Made by a program: the position numbers and the translations under genes. A DNA stretch of 64,000 nucleotides from Xestospongia bergquistia (taxonomy: Eukaryota > Porifera > Demospongiae > Haplosclerida > Petrosiidae): positions 8,619,501 through 8,683,500 of the forward strand of contig OZ014411.1 in the NCBI GenBank assembly GCA_963965975.1, read 5' to 3'. This document shows, piece after piece, positions 775 through 62,568 of this stretch. Numbering within the stretch: position 1 is the stretch's first letter; each line of letters starts with the position of its first letter. A model generated the notes under the pieces. The model was given only the letters and a program-made list of their open reading frames with translations, searched no databases and had not been told where the DNA came from.

Positions 775-2303
775 CTCATCAACTGACAACTCCTTTAAGT
801 AAGCTTTATTTTCTTGGAGGGTTACATGAACTTCTTCTGTTTTAATTTCTTTATTAGGCTTCTCTGTATAAGCATAAAAAAACAAATGAATTCAATTGTA
901 CTGTTATAGTATATGAATATTACAACAAGGATAATTTATGATATACTAATGTGCTTTGTATATATACCATTCATTGTTTTTTCTAGTCCATGAAGACGAG
1001 TGGTAAGTTGAAAATTATTCTCTTTCAACTCAGACAACTGTTTTAGTAGCTGTTCTTTTTCAGATAATGGAGATTCAATATTGTCTGGAACATTAGTACA
1101 AAACTCAGTGGAGTCATAAGAAGGATTGACTACAGGAATTATTACTTCTGTTTTGGTTTTAGGTGACATACTTTCAGAATAAGTTCGCTTTGATCTTGGA
1201 GGAATTGGAGGACGATTGTTTTTAAAACTGCCAGGAGATGGACGAGGTGGAATAGGAGGAGGGCTGCGTATTTCAGTATGTTGCTCTGTAGGAGAATGAA
1301 TTGTTTCTCTTTCATGTGGCAACACTTCATATTCACATATATTTATATTGTGTATGCCATTTCTCCATTCATGTTCAGGAATAGACTTTAAAAGGTCTTG
1401 TTGTAATATTCTAGTCACTGGAGAAACATCAGTAACAACTTCAGTTAGAAGTGATGGCTTGAGAATCTTTGCTAGCCACTGTGCATCTATGCTCAATTGA
1501 AGTTTTTCCTCTTCGGAGGTTTGCATGCGTCGAATATCAATAGGAACAGAACTTGTTATTTCAATAACATTACTTGGGACGTTATCATAATCATATCTCT
1601 TAGGTGTAGCAATTATAGATTGAAGCAAGTGATGATTATGGATTACTACAATTTCCTTTTTGAACAACATATCAACTTTTGTATCATCATGAGAAAGGTA
1701 GACATAAAGTGGTAACTGATGATGTTCCAGTAATAGTTGTAGATCAATAGATATCAAAGATAGTTGAGTTGTAAAATGACCTTTACAAGTGTCTTCAAGA
1801 CAAAATGATGCATTTGTCTCTGGGTCAATGCAATAAAGCTTCTTTCTCTTTCTACTTGAAGAGTCAATCTTTTTAACAATTAAGATTTGACCTTTCTGTA
1901 GTGACAGAGATGAATCCTTTGAAGATGTCCAGTTTTTCCCTACACTAACAACAGAAGGTTGAGGTACAGCTTTAATCAGGTCAGCCACAGTAACAAAATA
2001 ATATCCTTCTTTGGCCTTTTCAAGATTATTGTGAGGATTATAAAGAACACTTGCTTTCAATTGAGAAGTAACTGGTACAATATAGTTACGTGATGAAATT
2101 CTTACATCAACAACTTTTGTTTCTCTCTTAAAGTAAATGTAAAGTAGTTGACCATCAAAGAAAGATCCACTACAAACTCCATACAAAGATTCATTAACTG
2201 CCACTACTTGAGGAAGATGAATGCCATATCTTTCAATAAAAGCACTCAAAGGCATTGGAAGAGCATCCAATTCTTCATAAAACCGTTCACCGGATACAGC
2301 CAT
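775..2303 (-). CDS. Gene A: CABIT-domain adaptor (GAREM/THEMIS-like), 3' end outside window
   Basis: Exons on the minus strand are 2303-968 (start ATG at 2303) and 863-775. The junction is phase 1 and the second exon ends in phase 0 at a GT donor, as in B-F. The 475 codons visible contain a CABIT domain (about residues 15-270, with the Cys/Gly/Phe signature CKGHFTT near 176). Two SH3-type proline motifs follow (PPIPPRP and PPIPPR, about 345-372), then a heptad-like coiled coil (about 414-475). The SAM exon present in all sister genes is not in the window. In B it lies about 0.9 kb beyond the linker, so here it would be past the left edge or lost after the hAT-like insertion at 1-345. The protein is nearly identical to B. 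Predicted role is a cytosolic tyrosine-kinase adaptor, inferred from the domains. Confidence 0.8.
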
Positions 2304-3214
2304 TGTCCTTTGTTGTATGAAGACTACAAACCAAATACCGTATAACTTATTTTCGAGGTCTACAATTTTTTATTTATTGATTTATTGACCACGATAAAAC
2401 TTGGCGGAATTGTAAAATTTTATAATTTGGCCAGATTAAATTTGAAATATAGCAAATATCTTGTTGTCACACCCATTTTAATTAAATATAATGTTTGCTA
2501 TGTGTACGAAAGTGGGGGCGTGGCGACTACGAGAAAAATTTTGACTGTTATTTATTTTCGAAATTCGTAAATTCACTAAATTCCATCAATCGCCAATAAA
2601 TCCCGGTATACGGTATAGACCATAGATAAGTAATTAAATTAATAATTACTGTGGGCGTGACATTATTTATTAATAACTTGTTAAGACATATGTTTAAGAA
2701 TGTACTTGTCTGTTAAGCTGTCTCTTTTTCCCAATCTTCAAGGGCCAATAACGATGACTATTCCTTCTTGGACCATAGAGGCTACCAATAAAGAGGAAGA
2801 AGGAGTGCAAATAATAGAGCTCCTTATGCAAAATGTACACAAAGAGAAGGCAAAGAGAGGATTTTATTTTATTAATAATACTAATAGATCAATAAAAATA
2901 TAAAGTAATAAAGTCAATTGAGTGAATTGCATGAATTTATTAAGTGGCTACTCTGCTGTCACAGAGCGCATGATCAATAACTGCTTCATGTGTCAATGGG
3001 TGGGCAGGGTGATTGATCGATAAGTGAGACCCACGAAAGTTCGGTATTGCAGAATGAAGTAGTGAGAAAACTAATTGATTATTTGGCTGTAGGATTAGCT
3101 GTGCTTTGTTTACAATCATAGAAGCCAGCTTTTGTAAACACCAGTTGGTCCTATGCCACCAGCTGTATTAGAACTTCCTGAACCAATACAGCAGCTTTCT
3201 TACAAATATAGGTT
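2304..3214. other. Upstream region of gene A, duplicated upstream of gene B
   Basis: No convincing gene is present. Parts of 2304-2760 match 8933-9160 upstream of gene B: the motif ttatacggt/gtatacggt type stretch near the ATG, the block around ttaataattac.gtgggcg, and a segment ending in gggccaat/gggccatt. The promoter region was therefore copied together with the gene. No TATA box is obvious at a fixed distance from the ATG. Confidence 0.5.
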
Positions 3215-4255: not shown

Positions 4256-4338
4256 AGGGTTCAACTGTTTTTTTTCTCTTGTGTTGAATCCAATAAAAGT
4301 GGAAGCATGTTATGCTATTTTAGCATGGACTTGCTGCT

Positions 4339-6314: not shown

Positions 6315-8932
6315 TTAATCCTTATTAAACTTTGAGACTGAGAGACGACCATCAATGATTGACATCAGTTTAATACGATGTAGTCTTGTAGATATACCAA
6401 GGTCCTCTTTGAGAACAGACTCATCTAATTCTAACAGCAGACAGCCATCAATTTGTTCTTCAGTAAATGTCTCCTTGTATTTACCTAATCCTATTTTTTC
6501 TAAGAACTGGGCAACCTAAAATTTAAAGATATAGTTATTTAATATGTTTTATTTAATTATAAAATATTATTAAGAATAATGAATGAAGCACCTATAATAA
6601 TTGTACACATTAATTTTTATGATGAATGTACCAATTATGTATATGGACCAGTGTCTGAGGGGGAAGAAGACATTCCTTTAGAATAATTTCCAGATTGACA
6701 TGAAAAAGGAGGTGATCCTTGCCTATGTGGTGGTGGTGAACCATGACTACCATATTCAGAGTGGCTATCTAAATAATAAATTGTTTCTCTTGCTTTGTGG
6801 GGAAGTGTCAATCAGTATAATAGTGATGTTTACTACTTTACAGTGTCTTAGGGTGTATTATATGCAACCTAGATAACTATATCTTATTATATAAATTAAT
6901 CAATCAATTGTTTGTGATATAAAATGAATAACTTGGCATATATTGTCAGAGGTATAAAGATTTTGTTTAACCATAAACAAAATAAGATGCTAGTGCAGGG
7001 CTGTCACTATAGAATTTGTACCTTAAACGTATGCCATTTGGTATGGAAGCCAAGGGCAGACATTACAATATACGACCAAGATCAGGAACCCAACCCAATT
7101 AGAAACATTTCACTGACACTCAATTCTAGGAGACGGCTTATGGTACTCATGTTTTGCATTTTATTAAGTAGCCAAATAAAAATTAGAAATGACATATGTG
7201 TCAAAAATGAAATAAGTACTTTGGACTCATCAACTGTGTTGTTTATTGGTATTTTCAAATATGCAAAGGTCAACATAAGAAATAGGAATTGGAATGTCTG
7301 TCCTCAACTGTACAATTACTATGGCATTTACATCATGTGCCTTAACTTAGATGTATGCAACCTAAGTGAACATCTAATCTATTTTAATGGTGATCAATAT
7401 GTATTAATACCTCATCAATTGACAACTCCTTTAAATAGGTTTTGTTTTCTTTGAGGGTTACAGCAATTTCTTCTGTTTTTGTTTCTTTATTAGGTTTCTC
7501 TGTATAAGCACAAAAGAAAACAAATTAAATCAATTGCACTGTTATTGTACATGGATATCACAACAAGGATAATTTATGATATACTAATGTGCTTTGTATG
7601 TATACCATTCATTGTTTTCTCTAATCCATGAAGACGAGTGGTAAGTTGAACATTATTCTCTTTCAACTCAGACAACTGTTTTAGTAGCTGTTCTTTTTCA
7701 GATAATGGAGATTCAATATTGCCTGAACAAAACTCAGTGGAGTCATAAGAATGATTGACTACTGGAATTATTACTTCTGTTTTGGTTTTAGGTGACATAC
7801 TTTCAGAATAAGTTCGCTTTGATCTTGGAGGAATTGGAGGACGATCGTCTTTAAAACTGTCAGGAGATGGACGAGGTGAAATAGGAGGAGGGCTGTGTAT
7901 GTCAGTATGTTGCTCTGTTGGAGAATGAATTGTTTCTCTTTCATGTGGCAACACTTCATATTCACATATATTTATATTGTGTATGCCATTTCTCCATTCA
8001 TGTTCAGGAATAGACTTTAAAAGGTGTTGTTGTAATGTTTTAGTTACTGGAGAAACATCAGTAACAACTTCAGTTAGAAGTGATGGCTTGAGAACCTTTG
8101 CTAACTTCTGTGCATCTACGCTCAATTGAATGTTATCATCTTCTGAGGTTTGCATGCGTCGAACATCGATAGGAACAGAACTAATGATTTCAATAACTTT
8201 ATTTGGGATGTTATCGTAATCGTATCGCTTAGTTGTAGCAATTATAGATTGAAGCAAGTGATAATTGTGGATTACTCCAATCTTCTTTTTAAGCAATATA
8301 TCAAGTTTTGTATCATCATGAGAAAGGGAGACAGAAATTGGTAACTGATGATGTTCCAGTAATAGTTGTAGATCAATAGATATCAAAGATAGTTGAGTTG
8401 TAAAATGACCTTTACATGTGTCTTCAAGACAAAATGATGTATTTGTCTCTGGGTCAATGCAATAAAGCTTCTTTCTCTTTCTACTTGAAGAATCTATCTT
8501 TTTAACAATTAAAATTTGACCTTTCTGTAATGACAAAGATGAGTCTTTTGAAGACGTCCAATTTTTCCCTACACTAACAACAGAAGGTGGAGGTACAGCT
8601 TTAATCAGGTCAGCCACAGTAGCAAAGTAATATCCTTCTTTGGCCTTTTCAAGATTATTGTTAGGATTATAAAGAACACTTGCTTTCAATTGAGAAGTAA
8701 CTGGTACAACATAGTTATGTGGTGAAATTCTTACATCAACAACTTTTGTTTCTCTTTTAAAGTAAACGTAAAGTAGTTGACAATGACTGAAAGATCCACT
8801 ACAAACTCCATACAAAGATTCATTAACTGTTACTACTTGAGGTAGATGAATGCCATATCTTTCAATAAAAGCACTCAAAGGCATTGGAAGAGCATCCAAT
8901 TCTTCATAAAACCGCTCACTGGATACAGCCAT
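6315..8932 (-). CDS. Gene B: CABIT-SAM adaptor protein (GAREM-like), 538 aa
   Basis: Minus-strand exons are 8932-7606, 7499-7411 and 6515-6315. Junctions are phase 1 then phase 0, with GT donors and AG acceptors. Summed length is 1617 bp, which gives 538 residues plus stop. I chose the ATG at 8932 because MAVSSERFYEELD matches sister starts; the open frame extends further upstream without family similarity. CABIT spans about residues 15-270 (CKGHFTT signature). Proline motifs are SPPPISPRP and PPIPPR. A coiled coil follows (LLKQLSELKENNVQLTTRL, about 412-470), then SAM (about 474-538; GLGKYKETF, LLLELDES, LHRIKLMSIIDGR). It is closest to gene A. Predicted role is a scaffold/adaptor in tyrosine-kinase signalling, by homology only. 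Confidence 0.88.
6635..6811 (-). pseudogene. Proline-rich CABIT-gene segment inside the last intron of gene B (relic or alternative exon)
   Basis: The minus-strand frame reads LPHKARETIYYLDSHSEY followed by GSPPPHRQGSPPF and ends at a stop at 6635-6637. It resembles the stretch LPHERETIHS...SPPPI...P of the main exons of A and B, just after CABIT. It is in gene B's sense orientation, between the linker and SAM exons. I see no clear splice pair giving the right phases, so an old partial duplication is more likely than a used exon. Confidence 0.5.
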
Positions 8933-10394: not shown

Positions 10395-13247
10395 CTAATT
10401 CTGATTGAAACTGGAGACAGGTAATTGACCTTTTATTATTGCCAGGAGTTTAAGACGATGTAACTTCATTGATACCCCAAGCTCTTTGAAAACAGTGTCA
10501 TCCAATTCTAAAAGCAGAGAGCCATCAATTTGTTCTTCAACAAATCTCTCTTTGTACATTCCTAATCCCAACATATCTAAAACCTGGGCAACCTAAAGGG
10601 TTATTATGCATGTCATACCACAGTTATAAATATTACCTAACTTAAAACAAGGTGATTATAATGAATACATGTTATGAGAAAATACATATATCAGGCAACT
10701 ATGACATTATTAACTATTATTATGTATATATAATGGAAGTGAACATTATACAGCACTCTAAATGAGTCTGTTACCAGGCTAAATTAAAGCCATTCTAGTT
10801 TAAAATGGTTGATTCTGTATCCTTTACTAAGGTAGAAAATTAACTTAGATGTGGTGTGCAAACTGAGTCAAATATGTTTAGATCATATTAATTTACTAAT
10901 TAATTGATTTCTGTGTCTGTCAAATAGAACTTGCTTTTTTACAAGTAAGAGTTGACTAGAAAGTTATAAAGATTTGTGAGGGCTGTTTGCAAGTGAATTT
11001 CCTAAGTAAGAATGTTGTAGTAAAAATATATATTGCTTTAGCATGATTTTTTGAGTTGGCCTGTGCACACGCATGAAGTACAGTGTTGACAATGCACAAA
11101 GTCATGTCCTGCCAAGCCTGACTAATCAGACCTCTCCCTATGCATATATGTATGACTTGTAAACCAATAATAAAAGTTGTCCATTTTGTTTTGCTACTTT
11201 GACTACAAAAAATTGAGCACTGATCTGGAAAACCTGTAATCAATAGCAAGTTATAATACTTTTTGTTACAGTAACACACCAATCATTTACTTCAATTGAT
11301 GATCAGTTACTGGGGCTAGGAAATTTAAGACATTTTATTGATATTATGATGTATCCTATAACAATCAATATTAAGTTGCAAAATCATTCAATTTAATAAA
11401 GTAAATATTATATCATTTTGGTTAGTAATGTACTGTAGGATTGATTGTTCATGTGGTCAAGTGTTAGATATGATTTTGTTTGTATTCAGGAGAACTAAGA
11501 TGCTTGTCCAGGGCTGTTACTCTACAATAACTTTAATGAATTTGATAGTGATGGATACAACCAAAATGTCCATGAATTGGTTATACAACTAATTTATTTT
11601 AATAACGTACCAGTACTAAAATTAACTACTATATCAAATACCTCATCAACAGACAACTGCTCAAGAAATGTTTGGTTTTCTCTGAGAGCCGTAGCATTAT
11701 CTACAGTTCCCCTTTCATCATTGGGCTCATCTATTATAACACAATGTAATTAACTTTGAAGAAATATAGAATATAAAACAAACAAGAAACTTTTATCATT
11801 TAATATTACATAACATACCATTTATTATGTTCTCCAATTTTATTATGGAAGCAGTAAGTTTGTCAATACTATGTCTCATCTCTAACACCTCTTTTAATAA
11901 CTCTTCATTTATATCAGATATTGTTTTTGAAGTAGATTTAACATTTCTTTTAATGTCAGAAGAAACCTCAGCAGAGGCAGAGCAAGAATTGACACTTGTT
12001 GATGTTAATGGTATATACACATATTCTCCAACACAAGAAGTACATGTAATGTTTGCAGAAGACTGAATGTAAGAATAAGAATGGACGACTGGAATTATCT
12101 CCTTTGTTTCCTCTCTAGGTAGCAGATTCACTTGTTTTGGTCTGAAGGGTTTTGGTGGATAAAGGCTGCAACTGTTGTCATGACATGGGTGGGATAAAGA
12201 AGATAGATTATTAAGTCCGCTCAACAGTTCTTTCGGAGATTGTGGTACTTCTCCTCCTTGTGGAAACAATTCATGTTCACCTGTACTAATATTATGTACA
12301 CCAGTTCTCCATTCGTGCTCTGGAATTGACAATAAAATATCTTTTTGAAATATTTTAGCTACTGGGGAAACATCAGTAACAACTTCGGTTAAAACTGAGG
12401 GCTTGAGTATTTTTGCTAACTTCTGTGCACCTATACTCAATTGAATTTTCTTTTCTTCAGAGATTTGCATGATTCGAACATCAATAGGAACAGAACTTAT
12501 TATTTCCATAACTTCACTTGGAACTTCATCATAATTACATCTCTTAGTTGAAGCAATAATCGATTGAAGGACGTAATGGTCATTGATTACTCCAATTTCA
12601 TTTTTTAGCCATTTTTGAAATTTAGCATCTTCATGGCGGATGAAGACTTGAATAGGTAGCTTTATATATTGCAGTAATAATTTTAGATCAACAGCTATCA
12701 AAGATAGTTGAGTTGTGAAATGACCTTTACACGTCTCTTCAAGACAAACTAATGTGTTTGATTCAATGTTGATACAATTAAGCATCTTTCCCTTCCTATC
12801 TGACAAATCAATTCCTTTGATAAATAAAATTTGACCTTTCTCCAATGACTGAGATGAATCTTTTGAAGGTATCCAGTTTTTCCCTACACTAACAACAGAA
12901 GGTTGAGGAACAGCTTTAATCAAATCAGCCACAGTAGAAAAATAATATCCTTCTTTGGCCTTTTCAAGATTATTGTGAGGATTATAAAGAACACTTGCTT
13001 TCAATTGAGAAGTAACTGGAATGATATAATTATGTCGCGATAGCCTCACATTAACAACCTTTGCCTCCCTTTTAAAATAAATTTGAAGAGGTTGGTCATT
13101 TCTTAGTGATCCACAACAAACTCCGTAAATAGACTCGTTGACAGCAACTACCTGAGGTAGTTTAGTACCGTATCTTTCTAAAAAAACACTTAATGACATT
13201 GGAAAAGTGTCCGGTTCTTCATAAAAACCTTGAGAAGATAAAGCCAT
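10395..13247 (-). CDS. Gene C: CABIT-SAM adaptor protein (GAREM-like), 571 aa
   Basis: Minus-strand exons are 13247-11819, 11730-11642 and 10592-10395, phases 1 and 0, totalling 1716 bp. The start is the ATG at 13247 (MALSSQGFYEE); the frame opens upstream only through a TTG. CABIT covers about residues 15-275, with the shared core SVLYNPHNNLEKAKEGYY and the CKGHFTT signature. The proline region differs from A/B. It has lost PPIPPR and instead carries YPPKPFRPK, which still fits PxxPxR. A coiled coil near residues 440-476 precedes the SAM domain (VLDMLGLGMYKERF, LLLELDD, LHRLKLLAII). SAM lacks one residue between helices (FKELGV against LKEDLGI in B). Role inferred as for B. The last intron is about 1.05 kb with no gene. 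Confidence 0.87.
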
Positions 13248-38064: not shown

Positions 38065-38097
<33 letters not shown>

Positions 38098-44831: not shown

Positions 44832-47800
44832 ATGATTCCTTCTAAACCTCCTCCTAATCCCAAACCTTATCACCTTAAAAGGAAATCAGATGCTAGCTCA
44901 TCTCCAATGTTGCCAACAAGAAACAAAACAGACCAAGTTGCTGATAAACCTCCTCCTCCAATTACTCCTCCCCCTCCTTATCTTAACAAGCTTCATAAAG
45001 TGTCTTCTAATGATGACTATTATATTGACATGAATGGTACAAATGGTCCTGTTCTACCTCCACGTACTATACTACGGGAATATCCTCATCAAATTGTCAA
45101 TGGTAAAACTTACAATATAACTGTAGCCTTGCTATGTCTTCATATGATATTTCTGGTACTAAGATACTTTATATTTTGTTATGAGAAAAAGTTTCTTTAT
45201 TTTCTCAGAAATTATGTCAGTTGTATTATTAAAGTACTTCTGAAAATTACCTATTCAATACCTTAACTAACATAACATTGTACTAAAGGTATTAGTAATA
45301 TTTTAGTAAAAAAATACAACAATACTAATGCTTTGGACTTTGTGACTAGATTATGTGTATAGTTTATAGGATTTGTTAGGTGGTTGCGTCAATTAATAAA
45401 GCTAACATTTCTGTATCTTTTATCAACTGCTCAGACTACATGATCCAACGTTTGTAGTAACAAATTAAATTATGTTTTTGTAGTTTGTGTCAATAATAAC
45501 TGCCAGAATTGGAAGTTTATTTTGTTATCCTAGAAAAATACTCATGAAATTGTACTAAGCGTGTTTAGAGGATACCTATCTAGAGGATATCTAGATACAT
45601 GGACAACAAATTTAAAAAATGGCTAGAGTTACAATCTTTTTTGATTGTTACATCTAAGTGTTGCTGTGATACTGATAACTGAGGGTTATATTATATACAT
45701 ATATTATCCATTCACTCAAAACTATTAATTATAATACTTAATTTGTATTAAAGTATGTTATATAAATAAATTATGACAGTTTGTCATTTTTCTAGGTTCA
45801 ACTCTTCAAGCATTTATTGATGCTAATACCAAAAACCTCCCTGTTAAAGCTAGTGTAGATACTGGTCTCTATGGTCCAATGTCTGATTCTTCACTCTATC
45901 AAGAGAAAGTGACCTTTCACTTTGAAATGAAAATGAAAGTAGTGACTGGAACTATTGACAAAGCAGGGAGATATTGTATTCCTCTGTGTTCTTCAATCCA
46001 CTTCAGTCTGTTACACAACCCTACAGATAATATTCAACAAGCTATGTTGGGCCATTATTATGAGACTGTGGGTCATATATTAGCTCAACCAGATCAAAAT
46101 AGACCCAAGGTAAGCCATATTATCTGAGTTGATTTGTTGTTTGTTTATATATAGTAAAACTATCTTATCTAATAGTATTCTGTGAAGACTAATTATTATG
46201 TTATCAAATCTAGTGAATTATACCTCTTGAGATCTTATTTGTTCAAATGCAACAACAAGAAGCATTAATGAAAGATCACATTGAAATGTATATTAATTAT
46301 CAGCTTTAGATTTAGGGAAAAGCCCATAATTACCTCTTTAAGCTGTATTGACAAGTTTTTAATTTTGTAATTTTATTCAACACAATTGACCCAATAACTG
46401 TGGAGACTTGTGAGGCAGTTAGTTATATATGAGGCCATCCTGTTTACAAACATGTGTAATATTGACATGACTAATACAAACTAAGTTTTAATTAGCTAGG
46501 ATGTCAGTGAGCACTTCAACTAAATGCTAATTCTGCTTTACACACACATATACATCACTTTGGCTATGAGTTTCATTGATCGACTGAAACATGACCTTTG
46601 CTTGGTCCTTGAGGATGCAGTTCACTAGAATATACGGAGTACATTGTATTGCTATAATATTCAAAATATTCACTTTCACAATAACAGCTGCATTGTAATA
46701 CTATATAAAATATTTTTATGGGGTCCATGTTTGTATTCTTCAGTTTTACTATTGCAAATCTCTTTATATTATATTTGACACATATCAAAACAGCTGTTAG
46801 CTTATATTAACTTAGGTAATGAATTTACATGATATACATCTGTTTCTTAGTCAGTGATTTTATCATAAAACAAAGTATTAAGTCATATACACATTATGCT
46901 AAAGATTGTAAGATATTATAGAAGATTGATCATTAAAATGAACCTAGTCCTTAATATATGTATTATTACTTCACTTTTTATTTATTACTCATTTGTTTAA
47001 TACTAGGTTGTTTGTGTAACTCGGTCTATTTCTGGAACAAATGCAGAATCATCAGTTCAACATGGTGACATCTTACTTGTTAGTCCACGTGTGCATACAA
47101 GGACATTTAAACAAGGCAAATTCCTCAAATGTATTCATGCTACAACAGGCGAAGTCAAGATGCTACATGAAAACTGCTTGGGTGGTTTTACAACTCAACC
47201 AGACAGTATCAAAATGCTTCTTAAAGATTTCTGGGGTCACAAATACTGCCCTATACCACTCAAAGTTGTAGTGCATCATTCTTTACCGCAAGTTGTGTTA
47301 CCACAATGCATCGTCATGACATTAACAAATGAAGTTTGGGAGGACTCAATTATTGCTACTCACGAAGCCTCCAACTACAATGCAATCTCCAAAACTGACC
47401 CAACATACAATACCCATACATTACGCATACTAAAAGACGTAGGAATATTAGTAGTCACTGACAACACAGAGGATGAAGCTGAATATATTTTACAGTTACG
47501 TCAACAAACACATGACCTTTTTACTGAGTTTACTTTGAGTCGAGTCCATCAACACTTATTTGTTGATGACCCAGTGTGGCCTAACTTTGAGGAGGTACAA
47601 TCTATGTTCTATAAGAACGTTTTATTTGATACTCCTCGTGAGTTTGTTCAATTAAAAAAACCTGACTTTGCATTTAAAGCTTTCAAACGTCAAAAGTCAT
47701 TGAAAGCACACAGTCTTGTAGACGTTGACAAATCTGAAGGAGATAGAGTGTCACCAAATTCGATAGAAAATAAGCAAACAACGAGTGAGTACAGCGAGGT

Positions 47801-50800
47801 TCGAATAAGAACAAGATCTAGTGGACCCAACTCAGATTATGCCTTACTCTCTCATACCAATCCACAGGTATGTTTTCTGTCATAAGTTGAGACTATTTAT
47901 TGTAGTATTTATATATATTTAATGTATTCATTTACATGTAGTTGCTGTGTATTTGGTATTGATGATATAGTTTTCTATTCTGTGTTGTATGAGTCATAAT
48001 TAATATTGCAATGATAGGAGTGACTTTGTTAGGAACACATTCAACTAAATGTACAGGTGATACTACACTCTAGGGTTTAAGAAAGTTTGATCAGAATGTT
48101 TTGACATAAACTAGATACCATAGTTTGCCGCATGATAAAGGAATAGTGATATAATAGCTTTTGAATGTATATGCATGTCTGTATAATCCTTGTTTGACTC
48201 TACTGTGTATTGGTAATGACTATATAAGTTTTTGTTGTCCGTTATTATAATATAATTGAATTTGTAATATGCCTTATTTGTCATGGACATTATGATGTCA
48301 TAGCTTTCAGTGGATTAGTATGGGTATTTCCTGATTAATATGTACATGTACAAATACTGGAACTGCTAATGTACCAAATTGCATTTTCAGATTCCTTTTA
48401 AATTCTGATTGAAGATTTTTATTATGTTGTATTGAAGTATTGACATTTTCAATAACATCGTGACAATTATTAAGTGCTAAGTTTTACATTGGAGAAACAT
48501 TTTTAGAAGGTTTAAACCTTTGAAGCTTTGATCAGTCATATATGTTCTCAATTTGTGCAGTTAAAATTCATTGGCTTATCCAACAAAAATAAATTCAGGA
48601 CATGTACATGTAAATAAAATTACAAAGTATAGCATGTTTTCTTTCGTTAACTATCACTACATTAATAGAAATTACATCTTAATAGTTATCCCACATGTAG
48701 CACTACTTACGTAATGAAACTATAATTATAAAGAAGACCTAGTGTTAGCACTACTTACATAATGAAACTATAATTATAAAGAAGACCTAGTGTTAGCACT
48801 ACTTACATAATGAAACTATAATTATAAAGAAGACCTAGTGTCATGAGGCTAATGGTTGTTTAAAGGTCATATTTTGAACAACATTCACTTATTGAATGCT
48901 ATGTCAATATAACAATATATAATTTGTTTATGTAGAAGTGTGCATGTACTCATTTCATACATGTGTGGTGAAAATACTTAAATGTTTTAGGAACTTGGTG
49001 AAAGTGAGCCTTTCTTTATTATTCATGATGGAGTGGAAGTAATACCTGATGTTGCTAGACTACTTCATGAAGTTAACACTGCCAACAGACAGATGATGAT
49101 ACATGTAGAAGGACTCAGAGGTCAGTGTATTCATAATATGTCAATAATGGGCCTAATCATAGTTTCTGTAGTTCCCCTAATAATTTGTGACATCATATTT
49201 TAACTGAACAAATTTTAGATTTTATTTAGAAAGTTCAAACAGTAAAATCTTAAGATTAAAACATTAATTAATTTACAATGTTAGTTTCACATTTGAGTGT
49301 GTTAGACTTTTAACAGCTAACAAGTAGAATGTGATTACTAGAATGTAAAAAAGCAATGTATAGCCAGCTTAGAAGAAGAGTTTGATCAGCCACACCCATA
49401 AACATGGTAAACAAATACTATGTGCTTCAGCAGTTCATGTATGGAGTGTGGCTTCTTTGTATTCATAACTTGAATATAGTTAAAGAACCACTTACATTTA
49501 TTATATAATATCTAGCTAATGTTGCTTGTTATACATGTACATATCATACTTGTATTAAATATTTATGCTATTATTTTTCCTGTTAGCTGAAGTTGAGGGA
49601 TTGAAGTTGGACTTAAGACAGACCAAGACAATTATGGGTGCTATGAAAAGAGGTAAATTATTTTAAAATGTTACAAAGATTGAAGTACTGCTTTTTTAAA
49701 TTTTAATACACAGATACTTGTTGTAAATTATTATATTACAAAAAGTTGTAATTTAGTAGTGTTGTTTTAGTATGGTAAATTAGTTTTAGTTATTGTTAAC
49801 TAAAACAACACTATAATTTAGGGGTTTAATATTACTATTCATTATATAATCTAAGATATTAAACAACGTGGGTGGTCCACTACAGTGGCACATTACCCAT
49901 ATTAGATGACAGGATTATTATGTCACTACATTTGTCACTTTTGAGGTAGTGTGTTTACAAATTACAATGTAATACTAAGATTTTAGTGGAAACTGAAGCC
50001 CTATAAAGAGGTGTTACTATCTTATCAATGATGAAGTATTACTTTGAATATGTAAATATTATGGGAAATCAAAAAGATGCCATATTTCTATCCCTGATTC
50101 AATTCAGACTATAAAGTGTGTCATATGTACCAACTAATGGTAGTAATTGTATAAAATATTTAACTTGTAAAGCTCAGAACATGTGTTAAATAAATGATAG
50201 CATAAATAAGAATAAACTTAGACCTACAATTTCAAACTTGTCATCATAACTTTTTACTCAGAGCTCTATGATATGATTGGACGATTGGACTCTGAAGTTG
50301 CTTATTGGAAAGAAAGTATGGATGATTATATATCAGTCGTAAAAAGGGAACCACTTTCTGTGGAAGCTGAAAACAGAGAGATACTTAAAGCATTCACATC
50401 AGCACAGGTTAGTATTCCTATAATGTTCATCATAAGTAATACTGCCATGTTTAGTTTTGCTATTTGACTAACCCTTCATTTTGTGTGGAAGTTACTACTC
50501 CTGAAATTTGTATAGTGTTCTATAAATAGTATCATTCTATTTATAGACTATACTATTGTTGTTTGAAACCCAAGAGTGCCTGACAGTGTCACTGCATGCC
50601 TGTGATTGTACTAGCATGAGCAATTATATTTTGGCATTTGTGGTACTCAATTGATTCATCAACAATACATGCATGTTAAGTATATATATATATATATTTT
50701 ATTTATTTGTGTTTAACCTATGGATAATGCAGCCAACGATTATATCTAGCAATACCACTTGAGGTTGTATCATGTAATCTGCAATGCTATAGTCATCAAT

Positions 50801-51610
50801 ACTTACTATTTTGTCTGTCACTTAAAATTAAAGTCTAGCACAAAAATTATACTTCAAAAAATCTTATGATGCTTTTTGAAATTAAATAACATAACACAAT
50901 GACTGGCTATCATTTGTGACTTGTTATCCTTGAGCTTTCACAAATGATTTCAAATTTAAGATAATTGATCACTATTTTAAATGTCAGTCTCGCGACTCCA
51001 CTATTCATTTTAAAAAATAAGTAGTGGAGAACAGTGAAATTCATCTCGTGAGACTGTCATAAAATCTATCTTTGTGACATTTAATAATATTAATTGGTCT
51101 GACTTTCAGTATTAAATTCCCTTATTTAGACACATGACTATTAAGACCATGCCCACTATTGTATTCATTAATATCTTAAAATAACATTACATGTACATGT
51201 GATGCTTGTGGGTACATGTGTAATGAAACCTGTAATATAAAACATTCAATGAGAGGCTGGTATCTTGGTTACTCTTATATATATTATTTTTAACAATCAT
51301 GATAGCTATGTTCTCATGTGTGTCCATCTTTTTAATAACAAAAGAGCTAGACATTCCTGCTTTTCTATAGATATTACAAGCATTGGACATATTGAAACTA
51401 GGTCAATATAAGGAAATATTTCGTGCTAAAAAGATTACGGGTCTGGAATTGGTACATTACAATGACCACATTTTGTTACATGACTTAAACATAACCAATG
51501 GCTCAGATCGGATTCGTCTTGTGCTCTTTATTGAGGGACGAGAGGCTGTTTGGAAGCTTTTGGAAGAGGATGAACAAGACTTGCATACTAAAGAGACCAA
51601 TAATACATAA
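44832..51610 (+). CDS. Gene I: CABIT-SAM adaptor, seven exons, 675 aa
   Basis: Exons are 44832-45102, 45796-46109, 47007-47867, 48991-49120, 49587-49652, 50262-50407 and 51371-51610. All have GT-AG borders and compatible phases (1,0,0,1,1,0), totalling 2028 bp. The N-terminal region is proline-rich (PPPPITPPPPY, VLPPRT) with a YIDMNG motif (Y-x-x-M, PI3K-SH2 type). CABIT spans exons 2-3 (about residues 91-330; LYGPMSD, LLHNPTDNIQQAMLGHYYET, CLGGFTTQ). Exons 4-6 encode a coiled-coil linker (LLHEVNTANRQMM, GRLDSEVAYWK). The last exon is SAM (LDILKLGQYKEIF, LLHDLNI). CABIT is split by an intron here, unlike A-H. Divergent member; probably an older lineage. Role inferred from domains. Confidence 0.85.
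48699..48841. repeat. 48-bp tandem repeat, 3 copies, in gene I intron
   Basis: Copies start at 48699, 48747 and 48795. The unit starts agcactacttacgtaatgaa. The first differs from the others by g for a. It lies 150 bp before exon 4. Confidence 0.9.
49757..49813. mobile_element. 57-bp miniature element with 15-bp terminal inverted repeats
   Basis: tagtgttgttttagt (49757-49771) is exactly inverted at 49799-49813. The same terminus bounds the element at 25483-26227. It lies in the gene I intron between exons 5 and 6. Confidence 0.65.
50983..51057. repeat. Nested inverted repeat in gene I last intron
   Basis: Inner arms ctccacta and tagtggag, and outer arms cagtctcgcga and tctcgtgagactg, pair with a mismatch and a bulge. 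It may be a decayed MITE. Confidence 0.55.
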
Positions 51611-53125: not shown

Positions 53126-56100
53126 ATGCAGAACAGTCGTCCTATACCTAATGCAAAAAGGAGATTCTCTGCACAAGACACTTATGATACTTTACCTCCA
53201 ATGTCATCACGTCCCTTACCTGATATACCAACTGATCACCCACTTCCAAATCCACCCATTAAAAATGGTCCATTCCTACCACGTAGTGGACATCCTAAAC
53301 TTGGTTTATCCAAAACTCCACCTCCTCAACGACGCAATTTTATAAGTGAAGACAGTGTTCCTCCGCCTCTACCACCATTGTCATCACATCCAAGAATGAT
53401 GAAGTCACCAAGTACTGACTTGTTATTGGAAAATGTACAGCCTATTCTTCCCCAATTTACTAGTACCATTCCAACCCAATCAAATCCACCTCCTTTACCT
53501 CCTCGTAAATCCTCCAATCCTTCTCGATATGTGCAAAATCCTGTTACTAATTCCAGTCGAGATTTGCCAGGTCAGACGTATGACTGTCCAAGACCAATTC
53601 CTGAATCCACGGTCATTTATAATGTGCCTAGATCAAATATACAACCTTCATATGAAATAGTCAGTGAAAGTTCAACTGGTTCTTTCTATCCTGAATCAAA
53701 AAAGGAGAAGAAGTCTATTTCCAAAAGCAGTCCAGTGACTTTTATGGCTACATCTAAGTCAATGAGTCTCAAAGAACTAGTCACTGATCACCAAGAGGAG
53801 TTCCCTCTACAAGTTGAAGTTTCTGCTGGGTATTTTGGTGAGACAGATCGTGACACTTTTTCTGAGGGTGATCGTTTAAACATTCATTTTGTCAAACAAG
53901 TCACTGTTGCTATTTTAGAAACATGTAGTGGCTCTAAAGTAAAGCTACCTCTCAACTCTGCTACTCAATTTGGAATTCTCTATAATCCCAATGGTAATAT
54001 GAAGGAAGCATCAGAGGGATATATGTTTAAAACTGTAAAAGAGTTGTTACAACAACAAGAAAAACCGCAACTTGTTTGTGCTACTGAAACACACAAATCA
54101 TCTAATGCTACACATGCTGTTGAGAAAGATGAACTATTGCTTATCAATGAAGTAAAACATGGTCGTTTTGGTGGACAGTCAATTATGTGTACTCCTCTTG
54201 GCTCTACAAAACAGAAACGTCTCTCTGAAAACTGCCAAGGTCACTTCACTACCGACCCTAATAAGCTGAAACTCTTTCTTCCTGAGGTGACAAAAACATT
54301 TGAGTTGCCATTGAAGGCAATGGTATTCACTGGTCATACATTGAATGCACCACCTTTTGCCATGTCAGAAATTGTCACCATTTCTGGGTTAGAGAAAGAA
54401 ACAACTCTAATTGCAACACCTCTTCTTGAAGAATACTCTGATGAACCGCTCCTGAATATCCAAAACATTCAAAGATCATCAATGGATGACGATGCTGCTA
54501 TAATGTTTGACATACCAATAGACCTTGATGTTATGGAGGTAAGAATTATTAAACCAAATGAAGACTCCGATTTTGAGAAGCTCTATAAAGACACTCGTGA
54601 TCTCATTGAGACCTATGATCCATCAAGATTAGATAATCAAGTTCGTATCAAAGGGAATCGAGAAGAAGATCTCTATTATAGTGATGTCCGTCTAGATCAG
54701 AAGAATGCCGGTATTGAGCTACTTGCTCCCGAGTCAATCTATGCAGAAACACCTGGTTTGTTGGCATTAAAAAAATCTGCTGGTCTTCAAAGTGATATCG
54801 ATCACTATGATTACACTGATCGAGTATCATTACTCTCATCGAAACATAGTTCTACCACTAATTCCACTACTTCATTATCTAGTCATCTTACTTCCCTTCC
54901 TCCACTTCCTGAGTCTGCAGAACAGAACTCTTCATCTTCAAGGCCACCTAGTACTAATGAACACGTTCTACTTCAAGTCGATTGTCCTTCAAACATTGAA
55001 TCCTCTTTTGATGTAAGTCATTGTTATTAAGGTCTATTAGCAGTTAATAGATGTGTTAGATTATTAGAAAATCTATGTTGTATTGCAGTAGACTAACAGT
55101 CTATCTGCTTACCTTAAGGTCGCACTGCATTTCAGTTACTTCTTTACTAATGCTACTATATACATGTATATTACACTCTTGATTTGTGAATAGGGTGTTC
55201 TGTCTCACACTTTGTCTGTTAGCATACAATTTTTATCACTTGTAATGGACAATTACCAAATCTATTAGCTGAACTGATATATAAGGAAAATACTTAGTGA
55301 TATTGTCACGCTTTTAATTGTGCATGAGATTGTATTATATTTTATTGTATTTGTAATTGATATAATACTATACTGAATAAATGGGAATATTAGATATTTA
55401 ATATTGTATAGTAGCTCTCTGTGGCATTCATATTCACAGCCAGATATTCACACTCATACAAATAGATAGAGTTATTGACAGTTCCCTAGTCCCACCCCTA
55501 GACCTTCCTAAACACTAAATTGTATGACTAGTATAGTATAATAACATGAACTAGAATTTAAATGTTGTTTGGGGGCTTCTGTAAATATGAGTATACAATA
55601 TAGTATAGAACATTGTCTAACACAACTCACATATCCAATACATGAATGGTTAGTTAAACTCTGTTGGTTTGACTTTACAGGTCAACTGTTAACCGTAACT
55701 GCTTACTACAGGGTTAAGTTAGGTTTTTGATTTGACTTTACAGGTCAACTGTTAACCATAACTGCTTACTACAAGGTTAAGTTAGGTTTTTGATTTGACT
55801 TTACAGGTCAACTGTTAACCATAACTGGTTACTACAGAGTTAAGTTAGGTTTTTGATTTGACTTTACAGGTCAACTGTTAACCATAACTGCTTACTACAA
55901 GGTTAAGTTAGGTTTTTGATTTGACTTTACAGGTCAACTGTTAACCGTAACTGCTTACTACAGGGTTAAGTTAGATTGTTGGTTTGACTTTACAGGTCAA
56001 CTGTTAACCGTAACTGCTTACTACAGAGTTAAGTTAGGAGAGTTAAGTTAGGTTGTTGGTTTGACTTTACAGGTCAACTGTTAACCATAACTGCTTACTA

Positions 56101-59100
56101 CAGAGTTAAGTTAGATTGTTGGTTTGACTTTACAGGTCAACTGTTAACCGTAACTGCTTACTACAGAGTTAAGTTAGATTGTTGGTTTGACTTTACAGGT
56201 CAACTGTTAACCGTAACTGCTTACTACAGAGTTAAGTTAGATTGTTGGTTTGACTTTACAGGTCAACGGTTAACCGTAACTGCTTACTACAGAGTTAAGT
56301 TAGATTGTTGGTTTGACTTTACAGGTCAACTGTTAACCATAACTGCTTACTACAGAGTTAGGTTAGATTGTTGGTTTGACTTTACAGGTCAACTGTTAAC
56401 CATAACTGCTTACTACAGAGTTAAGTTATCTACCATTAGATTTTTCTCATTCTGCAGGTTCTTATGTTGACATTCATGAAGTTATTAGCATATTATTTTA
56501 GACAACCCTCCATACACATATGCATTTATGTATGCCATCCCAAAAAGAAATTACATTAAAGCATGTTAATATTAGATGCTTATCATTTCCAAACATGGAC
56601 ATCCCAACCTCAGCTCCAGACCCTACATTAAAATAATAAATTAACCCCAAAATACTTTACCCATACCAATGGCTTTCGTCAAGAGCTAAGCTTCCCATAA
56701 GGAATCATTTCCGCTTCCAAAATAAATGAACAGTGTATAGCATGAATTCTTATGTTAACTTAGTAATCTTGAAATACAAGTGAATGTTTGAAAACTTAGG
56801 TATGTTAAAATTTTAACATACTTTTATTTTTGACACAATCGCTGCCCTACAATAAAATCATCACTACAGGAAATACCTACAAATTGTATATCTAAAAACT
56901 ACTCATGCTTTGTAATTGAGTTTGTTGCATGTATTGTAATGTAAGTAAATATTGTCTGCATGTCTTCACAAGTTGATATTAACTTCTGTATTACAGATTG
57001 ATGAAAATAATGAATACTGTCCAATGAATCCCTCCAGTTTTATTAAACGATCTGTGTCTCCTACTCCATCAACTACTCAATATCTCAGTACTAGTATGCG
57101 TGATGCTCCTCTATATGCTGTGTCTAAAATGATTGAAGAGATAGATAATGTTAAAAGAACTGAAGTTGAGGCCATTAAGAAAGATATGAAAGAAATGAGA
57201 GAATCTTTTCAGCAACAGATGGAAGGTTAGTGGTACTTTAATAATACTTACAGATCCTACACTGCCTTTACCTACCAACAGAGTGTGGTATAAAGTTTCA
57301 ATATATTATAACATACAGACTTAAAGATGTCATTAAATTTGTGAACATACTTATAGTTAAATAAATATCTCATGAATTTACATACATTATAAATAGTATT
57401 TTGTGATATTCAAATCATAACACTAGAGTTGGCATTCTTTAAACATTGATATGTTCCCAACTGATAGTGTGATGCGATAGATCAACAAGTTAATGTAATG
57501 TAGGAGGATACTGATGAACAAATTTGTACAACTATGCAGTTCCTGTTTGTCCAGTAATATATATAGTTACATTGCATGTAGTATATATATGTAATGTAAT
57601 GATATATACACAGATATTGTACCTTTATATACATGACCTTTTTTCAAGATAAACAATCCATACATTCAATGTTTAGTTGAGCACGTCCACTCAGTCAAAT
57701 TAATGTAGACTAGTCATTATAGTATTATATTTTATATATAAGGGTCTTGCCCATTATATTTATATTGTATTTGGGTCTGACCCAAATAGGGGATTATCAA
57801 AATGAACCTTTCAATTTTGGGGATATATCTCAGGTTTATTGGTTTGCTTTACTGAAGAAATATATAATTTAGTTGGCAGAATGTAGAATACAGGCAGACC
57901 AACAGCTTTCATTGCAAATAATGTATACATAAGATTCACTCCTTTCTTTTGGATTAATGAATACATCATATCAGACTATTGAACAAAGTTTCATTATTGA
58001 AGTATCCATTGATAATCATATAGAGACAATATACATATTATAATTCAAGCCTACAACTAGTTGATTACCTTACATTATTTGCCTTAACGTAACTAAGACT
58101 TGAACAACCTGTAAAAATGAGGTCTCTCTCCAAATATTCATATGTGTACATGTACATATAGTGTATTACATGTATATTATACTTTTTGACTACCATATAT
58201 GTCATTAATTCTATTTACCTAAGTATTAAGTATAAATGACAGAAGTAAGGTTTCAGTTGACATAACAGACTCTACATTATCCTTATGTTTACATTGGAAC
58301 TATGTGATGATTACTTGATATGGCATCAGTCTATTATATTAGTGTTATGAGTAGTTTCAAGATGATCATGAATGGTAGTTCTAATAATATGTATACATGA
58401 AACACTAGGCTTCTATTATTTCATAGAACTTAGTTTCAAGTTATGTTTGTTCTTTAAGTAGTTTTAACCTTCTCATGGATCATAATTATGAAATTTTTCA
58501 TTGACAAGTAATAAATATTTTAGCTGACCTCCCTGTAGTTGTAATTGGAATTTGTTTGCTACACTTCACATAACTTAGAATTGATGTACTGTAGATGTAC
58601 TGTATTGAAATATAGATTCCAATATTTCTTTGTCCTTGACATGTGAGTAGTTTAACAATTATGCTATGTCATCATATATTGATTGGAACTGTGTGTGTGT
58701 GTGAGAGAGAGAGAGAATGAGAGGGAGGATAACAATGTATAGTTAATGTCTTTTATGACAATGCGTTCTTTTTTTAGCACTACAACAGGTGGTCTCTGAT
58801 CTTCAAAGTTCTCTTCAAGCAATAGAACAGCGATTGTCTAATGTTAACTATGTTGACATGTTACCACCTCACAACACGGATATCATCAATATGTCTTGTG
58901 ATGACGTAAGTAAAGTAATCATTAAAGCATGCATAGCACAATTGAAACAAGTTTGTACTGTATGTACGAAGCACTTCAAAGTTCTGCATTAAGTAAATGT
59001 ATTGGCAGATATATAATATTCAAAGACAGGAAATGTAACTAAAGTACAATAAGGAAATATAGCATTGGGAGATATATAATATTCAAAGACAGGAAATGTA

Positions 59101-59580
59101 ACTAAAGTACAATAAGGAAATAATGGCAGGAATATAATATTCAAAGACAGGAAATGTAACTAAAGTACAATAAGGAAATATAGCATTGGGAGATATATAA
59201 TATTCAAAGACAGGAATGTAACTATAGTACAATAAGGAAATAATGGCAGGAATATAATATTCAAAGATAGGAAATGTAACTAAAGTACAATAAGGAAATA
59301 TAGCATTGACTTTAGTTCTAACCTAACACATCTCTCTCACCATGCACACACACACACACACACACATAAACGATAGGTACAAGCTATGTTAGATAAACTC
59401 AATTTGAGTCATTACAAGGAAAACTTTCAAAGAGAAGGAGTCAGTGGACGCTTGCTAGTTGAACTTAGTGAAGAAGATTTGGAAAGAGATTTAGGTATGA
59501 CCTCTAGACTTCATCGTAAGAAGCTGATAATGGTGATACAAGGCAAACAAACATACCAACAACTTTTGCTTGATTCATAA
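53126..59580 (+). CDS. Gene J: long proline-rich CABIT-SAM adaptor, 815 aa
   Basis: Exons are 53126-55012, 56997-57225, 58778-58905 and 59377-59580, phases 0,1,0, totalling 2448 bp. The start codon follows a splice acceptor directly. Residues 1-205 are proline-rich with several SH3-type motifs (PPPLPPLSS, NPPPLPPRKSS). CABIT covers about 212-470 (MSLKELVTDHQEEFP, LYNPNGNMKEASEGYMFKTV, CQGHFTTD). A Ser/Thr-rich tail follows. Exon 2 starts with NEYCPMN (Y-x-x-M) and encodes a charged coiled coil (MIEEIDNVKRTEVEAIKKD), which exon 3 continues. SAM is about 749-815 (MLDKLNLSHYKENF, LHRKKLIMVIQGK). It is the closest relative of K, with which it converges. Role inferred: GRB2/PI3K-type docking scaffold. 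Confidence 0.87.
55663..56428. repeat. ~63-bp minisatellite, 12 copies, in gene J intron 1
   Basis: Units contain tttgactttacaggtcaac followed by gttaacc.taactgcttact and acagagttaagttag. I count twelve copies of actttacaggtcaac. Early copies have ggtttttga at the boundary; later ones have gattgttgg. One unit carries an extra agagttaagttagg. Each unit has a pyrimidine-poor acceptor-like ttacag directly followed by gt. Confidence 0.92.
59009..59307. repeat. ~60-bp tandem repeat, 5 copies, in gene J last intron
   Basis: Units contain atataatattcaaaga, then caggaaatgtaactaaagta and caataaggaaata, alternating with either a tagcattggg or a atggcagg spacer. A (CA)n tract (59345-59365) follows just before the SAM exon acceptor. 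Confidence 0.9.
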
Positions 59581-59933
59581 TTCTTTTGTAACACTTCAAT
59601 ATGGCAATTTGCTTTTAAGATTGTTTCATCACAAACACATCAAAGTCCATATCATTATATTATGATTTTTATTTTTGTAATCCTGTGAGTGTTTAAGATC
59701 AGTATTAATTGCATTTAAATTGTGTATTGCCTGTTACGGTTCAATATCATTATTATTTATAACAAAATTAACTGAAATCACAAATATGTTTATGCTGTTT
59801 GTCAATTATCGTAGTTTGACATACTATAGTGTTATTAATATTGTTAAAGGACTATTTAAAACATTACATCAAAAGTATGTTACAATTACATGTACTTATT
59901 TAGAATTAAAAATTATTTCCACGAACACACCAT

Positions 59934-62568
59934 TCAATCAACTTCCAGTAGTAACTTTGGAGATACAGTACCATTTATAACATGTAGGAGCTTTCCTTGA
60001 TGCTCAATAGAAACCCCAATGGATCTGAGATCTTCTCTTGTCATTTTTGCCAGTTTCTGGCCATCAATATTCTTAGTATGAAATATTGACTGATACTGTT
60101 GAAGTTTGAGACCTTTTAACATCCTTATGACCTATCAAAATGACAAGACAAGCTTTAATATTGAAAGTGATAAGTTTTGACATGTTTTCCATATTACAGT
60201 GTATACATAAACACATATCACATTTGCATGTATTAAACAAATGTTTTATATTGTTTATATATAACAAGATCATGTGATGGCTCTTCTATCATATGATCCT
60301 GTCACCACATGTTCAATTACTCAGAAATTCATTCTCACTTGTCCAAGTTTAAGTGATTCCAATGTAGCCTTGTTTTCGGACATTATGTCTGCAGTCATAG
60401 CCTGTGTCTTCTTAGCAGAAACGGATTGTGGTTTGGGAGGGAGTTGGGAAGGACGTTCTTTTAAGTGATCAATCTCTGTTTGTAAATCATTACAAAGTTG
60501 TTGTAACTTGGTCTGATTGTTTGTGAGATCGGATATCTGCTTTTTCATTTCTGTAACAGACATATAATTGTATTCTTAATGTGCATGGTTATGCTTATAA
60601 TGTCCTTTGCTTAATTATAATAATATAGTATAATATAGCAGTGAGTCAGTGACTGGCACGGTGGTCTAGATATCAAGTATGTATGATGTACTACAAGGAC
60701 ACAAATGTAATATAAATGATACCTTTAATTTGCTGAGAAAATGATGAATCTATTCTCTGTATATCGAGTTCTGTAGCTAAAATTCTCTCATTGAACTGAT
60801 CTGATCCATTCCTTTTAGATTTATTATTGGACTGTTTCTTGTCCTTTTCATTGGTATATTGTGGATTTGCTTGATAAGGATGTATAGACTTCCTGACACT
60901 ATATCGTGGTGGCTGTTGTATCTCAACGCCAATGTTTATCCGACTTTGGTGACAAGCTGCCAATGCTTCAGCTGCAAGTGGATCAGACGGCATTGTGTCT
61001 ATGTTCGGAATAGTTTGAAGTCTTGTTATGTCTATAGTACTAAACAAATGACCTGTCTCCTCATACAGTTGGGCTACTTCTTCTTCCTTTGGAGTTACCA
61101 ACTGGACACCAATATCCAAATCAATGGGGATTTCAATCAAAGGAGATGACTCTGTTGTTGTTGAGATACGAGAATCGAGTTGTGTTGCTATAAGGGATGT
61201 TTCAATACTACATCCTGTCAACTTCACACGACGTGTAGACAAATTTTGAGGAAGATCAGGGTTGTTGGTAGTATTTATGAACATGGCAAATGGTTGCGGT
61301 AATGAAAAGTGCTGTACAACTTCAGGTAAGTACAAACGAAGTTCAAAAGGACATGTAGTGAAAAACCCAGCACAACTATAACTTAAGGACTTTTGCTTTC
61401 CAGTAAAACAATCAATACATTTGAGGCTATGCTTAAATCGACCTTTACTTTCCCGCAATGCTAATACATCACCATTAGTCACTGAGTGAAAACCTGTCTT
61501 GTCTTTGCCCCAATTCATTGTAGCCTTGACAGCCAGTGGAACAGGATTTGCTTTCAAGACATCGCCTATAGTTTTAAATTCATAGCCAGTGAAGGCTGCA
61601 TCAATGTTGCCATGAGGAGCATAAAAGACTCCAAACTCGACAGAAGAGTTTAATGGTATAGTATAATGCCCAAATAATGCATCAGTAGCTCCAACAACCT
61701 TTGTATACTTCACAAAATGAATATTGAAATATTCTCCTTCAGAAATACTCCATTTGTCTGATGTGCCATAAAATCCTCGTGATACTCGGACACGAACAGG
61801 AAATTCATCTTGATGTTTGCTTACAAATTCACCAAGAGTCATTTCATCAGACGAGGCAAAGAACTCTTCGGAAGGTGGTCTAGTATTGCCTGAATCTTGT
61901 ATTGGTTGTAGAGGTAATGATGATGTTAGAGTCGTGTTATTTACATCCACAGTTGGCAAAGATGCAGACGAGGGTACACCAGGTTGTGTGCTAAGTAACG
62001 AGTAAGGAGGTGAAAATGGAGATCGAATATTTCTTGGTGGAGGGGGTGGTGATTTCACTTGACGTACTGCTCCATTTAAGTCAGGCAATTCTTCATAATG
62101 TCTACCTTCAGTACGTTGGTCTCGTAAGGAATTGACCAGGCTATTTGGTGGAGGATATTCAGGTTGATACTGTCTATTATAATTTGGGAGAGAGGAAGAG
62201 ATGTTTTCCATTTGCATAACCATACCATATCCTTGTTTCCCAGGAGGCTTGTTGGGCCTTGGAGGGATAGCAGTGGGAAATGCTTTTCCATTGAATGATG
62301 AAATTTGACCCGAAGTTTTTTTCTGATGGGTTATCTTTTTCTGTGGCTTCTTTTTCATTACATCACTCAATTCATTGCTGATGTTATGAGACTGACTCTG
62401 CTTGGAATACCATTTTCCTTTTTCATCTTCATCTTTCATGTCAATATAGCTATCGTCTGAATCTGACCCACCATTTCCATTAACACTGGTTACAACGTCA
62501 TCATAAAACATTTCTTTGAAATCATCTTTGACATGTATTTGGGGAATGTCATACGCTGCCATAGTCAT
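59934..62568 (-). CDS. Gene K: long proline-rich CABIT-SAM adaptor, 751 aa
   Basis: Minus-strand exons are 62568-60723, 60550-60339 and 60131-59934, phases 1 and 0, totalling 2256 bp. I chose ATG 62568 (MTMAAYDIPQ) because ttttactag, a good acceptor, ends five bases upstream; the longer frame to 62655 would cross it. Residues 1-235 hold DDSYIDMKDED (Y-x-x-M) and SH3-type PPPPPRNIRS and IPPRPNKPP. CABIT is about 241-490 (MTLGEFVSKHQDEFP, FYAPHGNIDAAFTGYEFKTI, CAGFFTTC). Exon 2 is a coiled coil (MKKQISDLTNNQTKLQQL) with a PPKP motif. SAM is divergent (MLKGLKLQQYQSIF, LRSIGVSIEHQGKLLHVING), lacking the LHR motif of most sisters. Its 3' end is 353 bp from the end of J. Role inferred from GAREM. 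Confidence 0.87.

What the first reader, a model, noticed from the sequence alone, without database searches (positions are those of the whole stretch)
775..62568. Array of eleven CABIT-coiled coil-SAM adaptor genes
Bilaterians such as vertebrates have very few GAREM and THEMIS genes. Here eleven intact or nearly intact genes with GAREM-like domain content lie side by side in 62 kb, in two orientation blocks, with relics of more. Such birth-and-death clusters are typical of immune or recognition genes, so this may be a lineage-specific signalling-adaptor system downstream of a diversified receptor set. CABIT/SAM identity is from motif reading; the biological role is inference.
Basis: partly seen in the sequence, partly recalled or inferred. 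Interest (0 to 1): 0.85.

Follow-up and report, generated by a model that had tools for sequence, protein, structure and literature searches.

The report
Giant sponge signalling-adaptor gene array
A sponge-like chromosome carries about 25 side-by-side genes for a signalling adaptor of which mammals have only five relatives, and the same genome also carries repeated copies of the kind of phosphatase and kinase that such adaptors work with in mammalian cells, which makes an early animal version of that wiring open to test.

Summary
The window has eleven CABIT-proline-SAM genes (w1-w11). A twelfth starts at 63,790, and the array runs on to the left: 25 CABIT genes in 213 kb of one chromosome. Genome-wide searches, whose counts are lower bounds, found no CABIT elsewhere except one broken fragment. 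All 27 SAM exons share one splice position. The 146 Mb genome is sponge-like: the one named relative is from Amphimedon. Architecture is GAREM's (one CABIT, proline-rich stretch, SAM) plus a likely coiled coil. w10 has relatives in many sources; the rest are older or recent tandem copies. CABIT cores look homogenised, by gene conversion more likely than codon constraint, while linkers diverge. No dN/dS above 1 was found, so there is no arms-race signature; the immune role is inference. New here: the genome also holds a GRB2-like gene, six tandem two-SH2 frames (the one read in full is SHP-2-like) and ten SH2 places in a row (the one read is Src-like). Best reading: a diversified scaffold set coupling GRB2 and SHP-type phosphatase to tyrosine-kinase signalling.

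The parts
775..2303 (-). gene w1: CABIT-proline exon 968-2303, linker exon 775-863; SAM exon lies outside the window at C1:8617393-8617593
6315..8932 (-). gene w2: exons 7606-8932, 7411-7499, SAM 6315-6515
10395..13247 (-). gene w3: exons 11819-13247, 11642-11730, SAM 10395-10592
15658..17443 (-). gene w4: exons 16045-17443, 15906-15988, SAM 15658-15858
22116..23862 (-). gene w5: exons 22539-23862, 22361-22443, SAM 22116-22310
27520..29331 (+). gene w6: exons 27520-28924, 29006-29088, SAM 29137-29331; homogenised tract near residues 84-123
32583..34762 (+). gene w7: exons 32583-34278, 34363-34502, SAM 34571-34762
36344..38581 (+). gene w8: exons 36344-38039, 38132-38280, SAM 38387-38581
44832..51610 (+). 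gene w9: eight-exon model, CABIT split by an intron (45796-46109 and 47007-47867), SAM 51371-51610; short inner exons uncertain
53126..59580 (+). gene w10: the member with relatives in many database sources; CABIT exon 53126-55012, linker exons (the shortest uncertain), SAM 59377-59580
59934..62655 (-). gene w11: exons 60723-62655, 60339-60550, SAM 59934-60131
63790..64000 (+). gene w12, 5' part only; model continues to C1:8686115
26735..26809 (+). relic of a SAM exon (25 residues, 60% to w2)

Best explanation
This is a tandem array of about 25 sponge genes of the THEMIS/GAREM (CABIT) adaptor family with GAREM-type architecture plus a likely coiled coil, kept in one locus by repeated local duplication, with gene conversion of the CABIT core (and in one pair the SAM exon) and freer divergence of the linkers. 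Most likely mechanism (inferred by analogy): proline motifs in the linker or N-terminus dock on GRB2-type SH3 domains and so bring the adaptor to activated tyrosine-kinase receptors; the CABIT domain, with its conserved core cysteine, binds the phosphatase domain of an SHP-type phosphatase and holds it inactive, so kinase output lasts longer; coiled coil and SAM oligomerise the scaffold. The paralogues would set different thresholds or serve different receptors or cell types through their divergent linkers. Shown by computation: genes, domains, cysteine, SH3-type motifs in some genes, partner-like genes. Inferred: binding, oligomerisation, division of labour.
For: 25 CABIT genes at C1:8473.6-8686.1 kb; genome-wide, w10 hits 26 places, all in the array, and w6 hits 24 in the array plus one broken fragment. 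27 of 27 SAM exons have the same acceptor position. Core Cys in 25 of 25 array genes and 40 of 41 database relatives. PPxPP[RK] motifs: 11 seen against 0.1 in shuffles over 24 genes. A database relative of w10 (P0043) carries CABIT and SAM in one chain and aligns without gaps through the predicted SAM junction. GRB2-like frame. SHP-2-like frame, best PDB match PTPN11 at E 3.6e-154, one of six two-SH2 frames within 17 kb. Src-like frame in a row of ten SH2 places. Mammalian mechanism: PMC10987373 passages, PMC10968029 passages of section 6.4, PMC4082722 passages.
Against: No binding, expression or phenotype data. PPxPP[RK] motifs are in only 9 of 24 genes, and c07-c11 and c13 have none of the three SH3 patterns counted, so GRB2 docking cannot be general. 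YxN (13 seen, 11.3 expected) and ITIM-like (9, 16.1) motifs are not above chance. The second core cysteine is missing in 2 of 25 genes and the core glycine in 7 of 25. In w1/w2/c12 the linker is not more diverged than CABIT (dS 0.06-0.08 against 0.08-0.14), against a general rule. Repeated genes of other kinds (peptide-transporter-like, monooxygenase-like by eye) lie in the same stretch, so co-expansion may be coincidence. A CABIT-phosphatase contact is described for THEMIS, not for GAREM, in what I read.
Confidence: 0.5

Rival explanations
1. Ordinary tandem family growth in a genome prone to it: the paralogues work in growth-factor or developmental signalling (GAREM-like), with dosage and subfunctionalisation only, and the two-SH2 and Src-like arrays are unrelated.
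For: dN/dS between 0.26 and 0.93, no pair above 1; other repeated genes in the same 263 kb; several lineages have close database orthologues.
Against: All CABIT genes found sit in one locus and the two partner-like families are also arrayed, which chance alone makes somewhat unlikely; no genome-wide rate of tandem arrays was measured.
Confidence: 0.35
2. A sponge immune or self-recognition signalling system: the adaptors diversified with a diversified receptor set.
For: Birth-and-death pattern; partner-like families arrayed; THEMIS is an immune adaptor in mammals.
Against: No diversifying selection seen in pairwise counts; no receptor family was examined; the closest mammalian architecture, GAREM, is ubiquitous or brain-specific (passages).
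Confidence: 0.12
3. The count is inflated by assembly: unmerged haplotypes or mis-joined copies make recent paralogues appear twice.
For: c02-c04 are 94-95% alike over 2.6-4.0 kb, and c11-c12/c13-w1 is a block duplication.
Against: Other lineages are far more diverged (w3-w6: dS 0.45-1.62 by part of exon), and the contig is 28 Mb. Only the most alike copies could be affected.
Confidence: 0.05
4. For the homogenised tract only: selection on synonymous sites (an exonic signal) rather than gene conversion keeps codons alike in w2-w6.
For: Codon identity in the tract is raised in four of five between-lineage comparisons too (0.51-0.64 against 0.40-0.41; not in w2-w6 x c06,c07).
Against: Within w2-w6 it is 0.96 against 0.64 outside the tract, with sharp edges; runs of 41-47 identical silent codons reached by 0 of 2000 shuffles in all six w3-w6 pairs; w7/w8 have a different, wider tract and a 96% SAM exon.
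Confidence: 0.25

Closest known systems
[quoted passage not shown]
   Same: One CABIT, proline-rich stretch, SAM (definition from PMC4082722, passages; PMC8086153 passages)
   Different: Here a likely coiled coil precedes the SAM; models are 533-914 residues against 875 for GAREM; genes are 25 in one array; several lack SH3 motifs
THEMIS1/2/3
   Same: CABIT with conserved core cysteine; proline-rich SH3-type ligands in part of the genes
   Different: One CABIT, not two; a SAM domain is present
Large tandem immune families such as sea urchin SpTransformer (PMC8634487, search listing and start of abstract only; tandem arrangement recalled)
   Same: Large gene family with very recent copies
   Different: Intracellular adaptors here; no sign of diversifying selection; homogenised domain and variable linker

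Membership tests
CABIT (THEMIS/GAREM) family | CABIT domain | tested here: met
   Pfam PF12736 over cut-off in 14 of 25 array genes over (c03, c04 and c10 by the genome search alone; w9, c07 and c13 reached it in no call and were not given to hmmscan; eight given frames were not reported); all 25 hit by w10
CABIT (THEMIS/GAREM) family | conserved core cysteine | tested here: met
   25 of 25 array genes, 40 of 41 relatives
CABIT (THEMIS/GAREM) family | fold shared with solved THEMIS structures | tested here: inconclusive
   two models with nearly the same order of elements; no PDB chain listed matches the whole domain
GAREM | exactly one CABIT followed by SAM | tested here: met
   computed spliced models of 24 of 25 genes; one database relative with both in one chain
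GAREM | proline-rich SH3 ligands for GRB2 | tested here: inconclusive
   PPxPP[RK] in 9 of 24 genes; binding not tested
GAREM | groups with bilaterian GAREM in a tree | not tested
   no bilaterian GAREM or THEMIS sequence was obtained; the tree holds the array and database relatives only
THEMIS | two consecutive CABIT domains | tested here: not met
   one CABIT per gene in all 25

The most novel reading that the evidence does not exclude
A sponge has expanded, as one functional module, the CABIT adaptor (25), its SHP-type phosphatase (up to six frames in one row) and Src-type kinases (up to ten in one row) around a GRB2-like hub: a threshold-setting circuit like that of the T-cell receptor, diversified in parallel long before lymphocytes, feeding many receptors.
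Probability: 0.2. Interest if true: 0.88.

Novelty: new variant of a known kind. Interest (0 to 1): 0.6.

Why it matters
The family was described in 2014 as traceable to cnidarians, with five members in mammals (PMC4082722, passages). A 25-gene array in a sponge would move its known origin and its largest expansion deeper, and the co-occurring phosphatase-like and kinase-like arrays give a concrete, testable ancestral circuit. I saw no report of it: 7 papers listed for 'CABIT domain', and capped listings, seen as titles and abstract starts. Most subscription papers are not held, and the founding 2009 paper could not be read, so this is weak evidence of absence.
Full report
What is there. The window lies at C1:8619501-8683500 of a 146.5 Mb genome in 21 contigs. 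Stop-to-stop frames show eleven CABIT genes (w9's CABIT is split over two frames) and ten short SAM frames (all ten over the Pfam cut-off). I fetched 20 stretches of 10 kb around the window, joined them with the window in a script, built profiles from the window's own CABIT and SAM frames and scanned all frames of 263 kb. The result is 25 CABIT genes (two of them, c04 and w9, split over two frames) and 27 SAM exons between 8473.6 and 8686.1 kb. I call the genes c01-c13 (left of the window), w1-w11 (in it) and w12 (starts at 63,790, ends outside). Two SAM exons have no CABIT of their own (8572504 and 8578775).

One locus. A genome-wide search with w10 gave 26 places, all inside the array and covering all 25 genes. 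With w6 it gave 25 places: 24 in the array (w12 missed) and one fragment with five stops at C1:13937591. Pfam CABIT gave 11 places, all in the array. The tool calls such counts lower bounds.

Gene anatomy. All 27 SAM exons begin after an AG at the same place, with V or I as first residue (23 V and 3 I where the profile match starts at the exon edge; in 8562019 the match starts two residues in). Spliced models for 24 of 25 genes read open from CABIT to the SAM stop. They are computed only. Partial outside support is P0043, a database relative of w10 with CABIT and SAM in one 599-residue chain that aligns without gaps through the predicted SAM junction; whether it comes from a transcript is not known. 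The typical plan is CABIT, proline/tyrosine-rich linker, heptad-like stretch (read by eye), short linker exon, SAM. c04 has an in-frame TAG in its CABIT. In w1 transposase-like reading frames sit in the last intron (the type is recalled, not tested).

Organism. The only named relative is Amphimedon queenslandica LOC100632476, 45% identical to w10 over 82% of the query. I take the genome as that of a sponge other than Amphimedon; that is inference.

History. In a tree of 66 CABIT rows, w10 is the only array gene in a clade with 24 database proteins, the Amphimedon one among them. w1-w6 and c12 form a clade whose nearest outside rows (P0041, P0042) are 34-35% identical to w6. Each of w3, w4, w5 and w6 pairs with two close database proteins, whose sources are not named. 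P0033/P0039 and P0035/P0040 share contig lengths, which suggests, but does not show, that neighbours stay neighbours in related genomes. c02-c04, c08-c11/c13 and w1/w2/c12 are recent. A two-gene block (c11-c12) was copied to c13-w1. dN/dS is 0.32-0.60 over whole exons in the w1-w6/c12 set (21 pairs), and 0.31-0.62 in CABIT against 0.26-0.93 in the rest of the exon over four groups (20 pairs); none exceeds 1.

Homogenised core. In w2-w6 a tract of about 40-45 codons (w6 residues 84-123) has 365 of 380 same-amino-acid codons identical, against 957 of 1502 in the rest of CABIT. All six pairs among w3-w6 have runs of 41-47 identical silent codons, reached by 0 of 2000 shuffles each; the four pairs with w2 are mostly weaker (0, 11, 30 and 76 of 2000). 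In w7/w8 two 30-codon windows in the middle of CABIT are 98-99% alike in DNA and the SAM exon 96%, while the last five windows of the exon (linker) are 54-68%. In c08-c11/c13 dS is 0.09-0.17 in CABIT and 0.21-0.38 in the rest of the exon; in w1/w2/c12 the difference is absent (0.08-0.14 and 0.06-0.08). Against conversion alone, codon identity in the tract is raised in four of five between-lineage comparisons as well (0.51-0.64 against 0.40-0.41). Gene conversion with freer linkers fits best; codon constraint is not excluded.

Motifs. Over 24 genes, outside approximate CABIT and SAM bounds, PPxPP[RK] occurs 11 times (0.1 in shuffles) in 9 genes, PxxPx[RK] 27 times (6.7) and [RK]xxPxxP 9 times (6.8). 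YxN (13, 11.3), YxxP (17, 16.8) and ITIM-like motifs (9, 16.1) are near or below chance, and YxxL/I/V is 54 against 42.4. The nearest solved SAM to w2's is that of SARM1 at E 2.8e-10, an octamer-forming protein (recalled). That allows but does not show oligomerisation.

Partners in the same genome. A single 238-residue frame SH3-SH2-SH3 at C2:9241 kb matches GRB2 (E 1.5e-47). On C3:1266387-1283528 six frames carry two SH2 domains each, five of 532-567 residues and one of 289; the one read in full has two SH2 domains and a PTP domain with HCSAGIGRTG and matches PTPN11/SHP-2 (E 3.6e-154), and a second, cut by the locus end, begins alike. On C6:1622-1697 kb ten SH2 places lie in a row with SH3 places among them; the one read is SH2-kinase, closest to Src. 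In mammals THEMIS's CABIT binds the SHP-1 phosphatase domain and stabilises oxidation of its catalytic cysteine, with GRB2 recruiting THEMIS (PMC10987373, passages), and GAREM's proline-rich motifs bind GRB2's SH3 domains (PMC10968029, passages of section 6.4). The arrays therefore match the known circuit part by part. Whether they grew together is not shown; the CABIT stretch also holds repeats of other genes, and no genome-wide control of tandem arrays was run.

Verdict. A real array, larger than reported, of known-family adaptors in an unexpected number and animal. Immune function is a guess. The tyrosine-phosphorylation circuit is the better-grounded reading.

Noticed in passing
G000 C3:1266387-1283528 (L029 read in part): Six two-SH2 frames in a row (five of 532-567 residues, one of 289); the one read in full is an intronless SHP-2-like phosphatase frame with its catalytic motif present
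   Followed up: partly
G000 C6:1622265-1697212 (L031 read in part): Ten SH2 places in a row with SH3 places among them; the one read is Src-like SH2-kinase
   Followed up: partly
G000 C1:8571098-8572737 (in L022): Coiled coil-like frame followed by a SAM exon with no CABIT exon of its own: a possible adaptor lacking CABIT
   Followed up: no
G000 C1:8485728-8505159, 8540988-8547545, 8689639-8691182: Repeated copies of monooxygenase-like and peptide-transporter-like genes (named by eye) inside and beside the array
   Followed up: no
window 1-390 and G000 C1:8618602-8619890: Transposase-like frames (type recalled) inside the last intron of w1
   Followed up: no
window 55662-56428, 59001-59308: Tandem repeats with 63-base units in w10's introns
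   Followed up: no
G000 C1:13937591-13937881: The only CABIT piece found outside the array, with five stops
   Followed up: no
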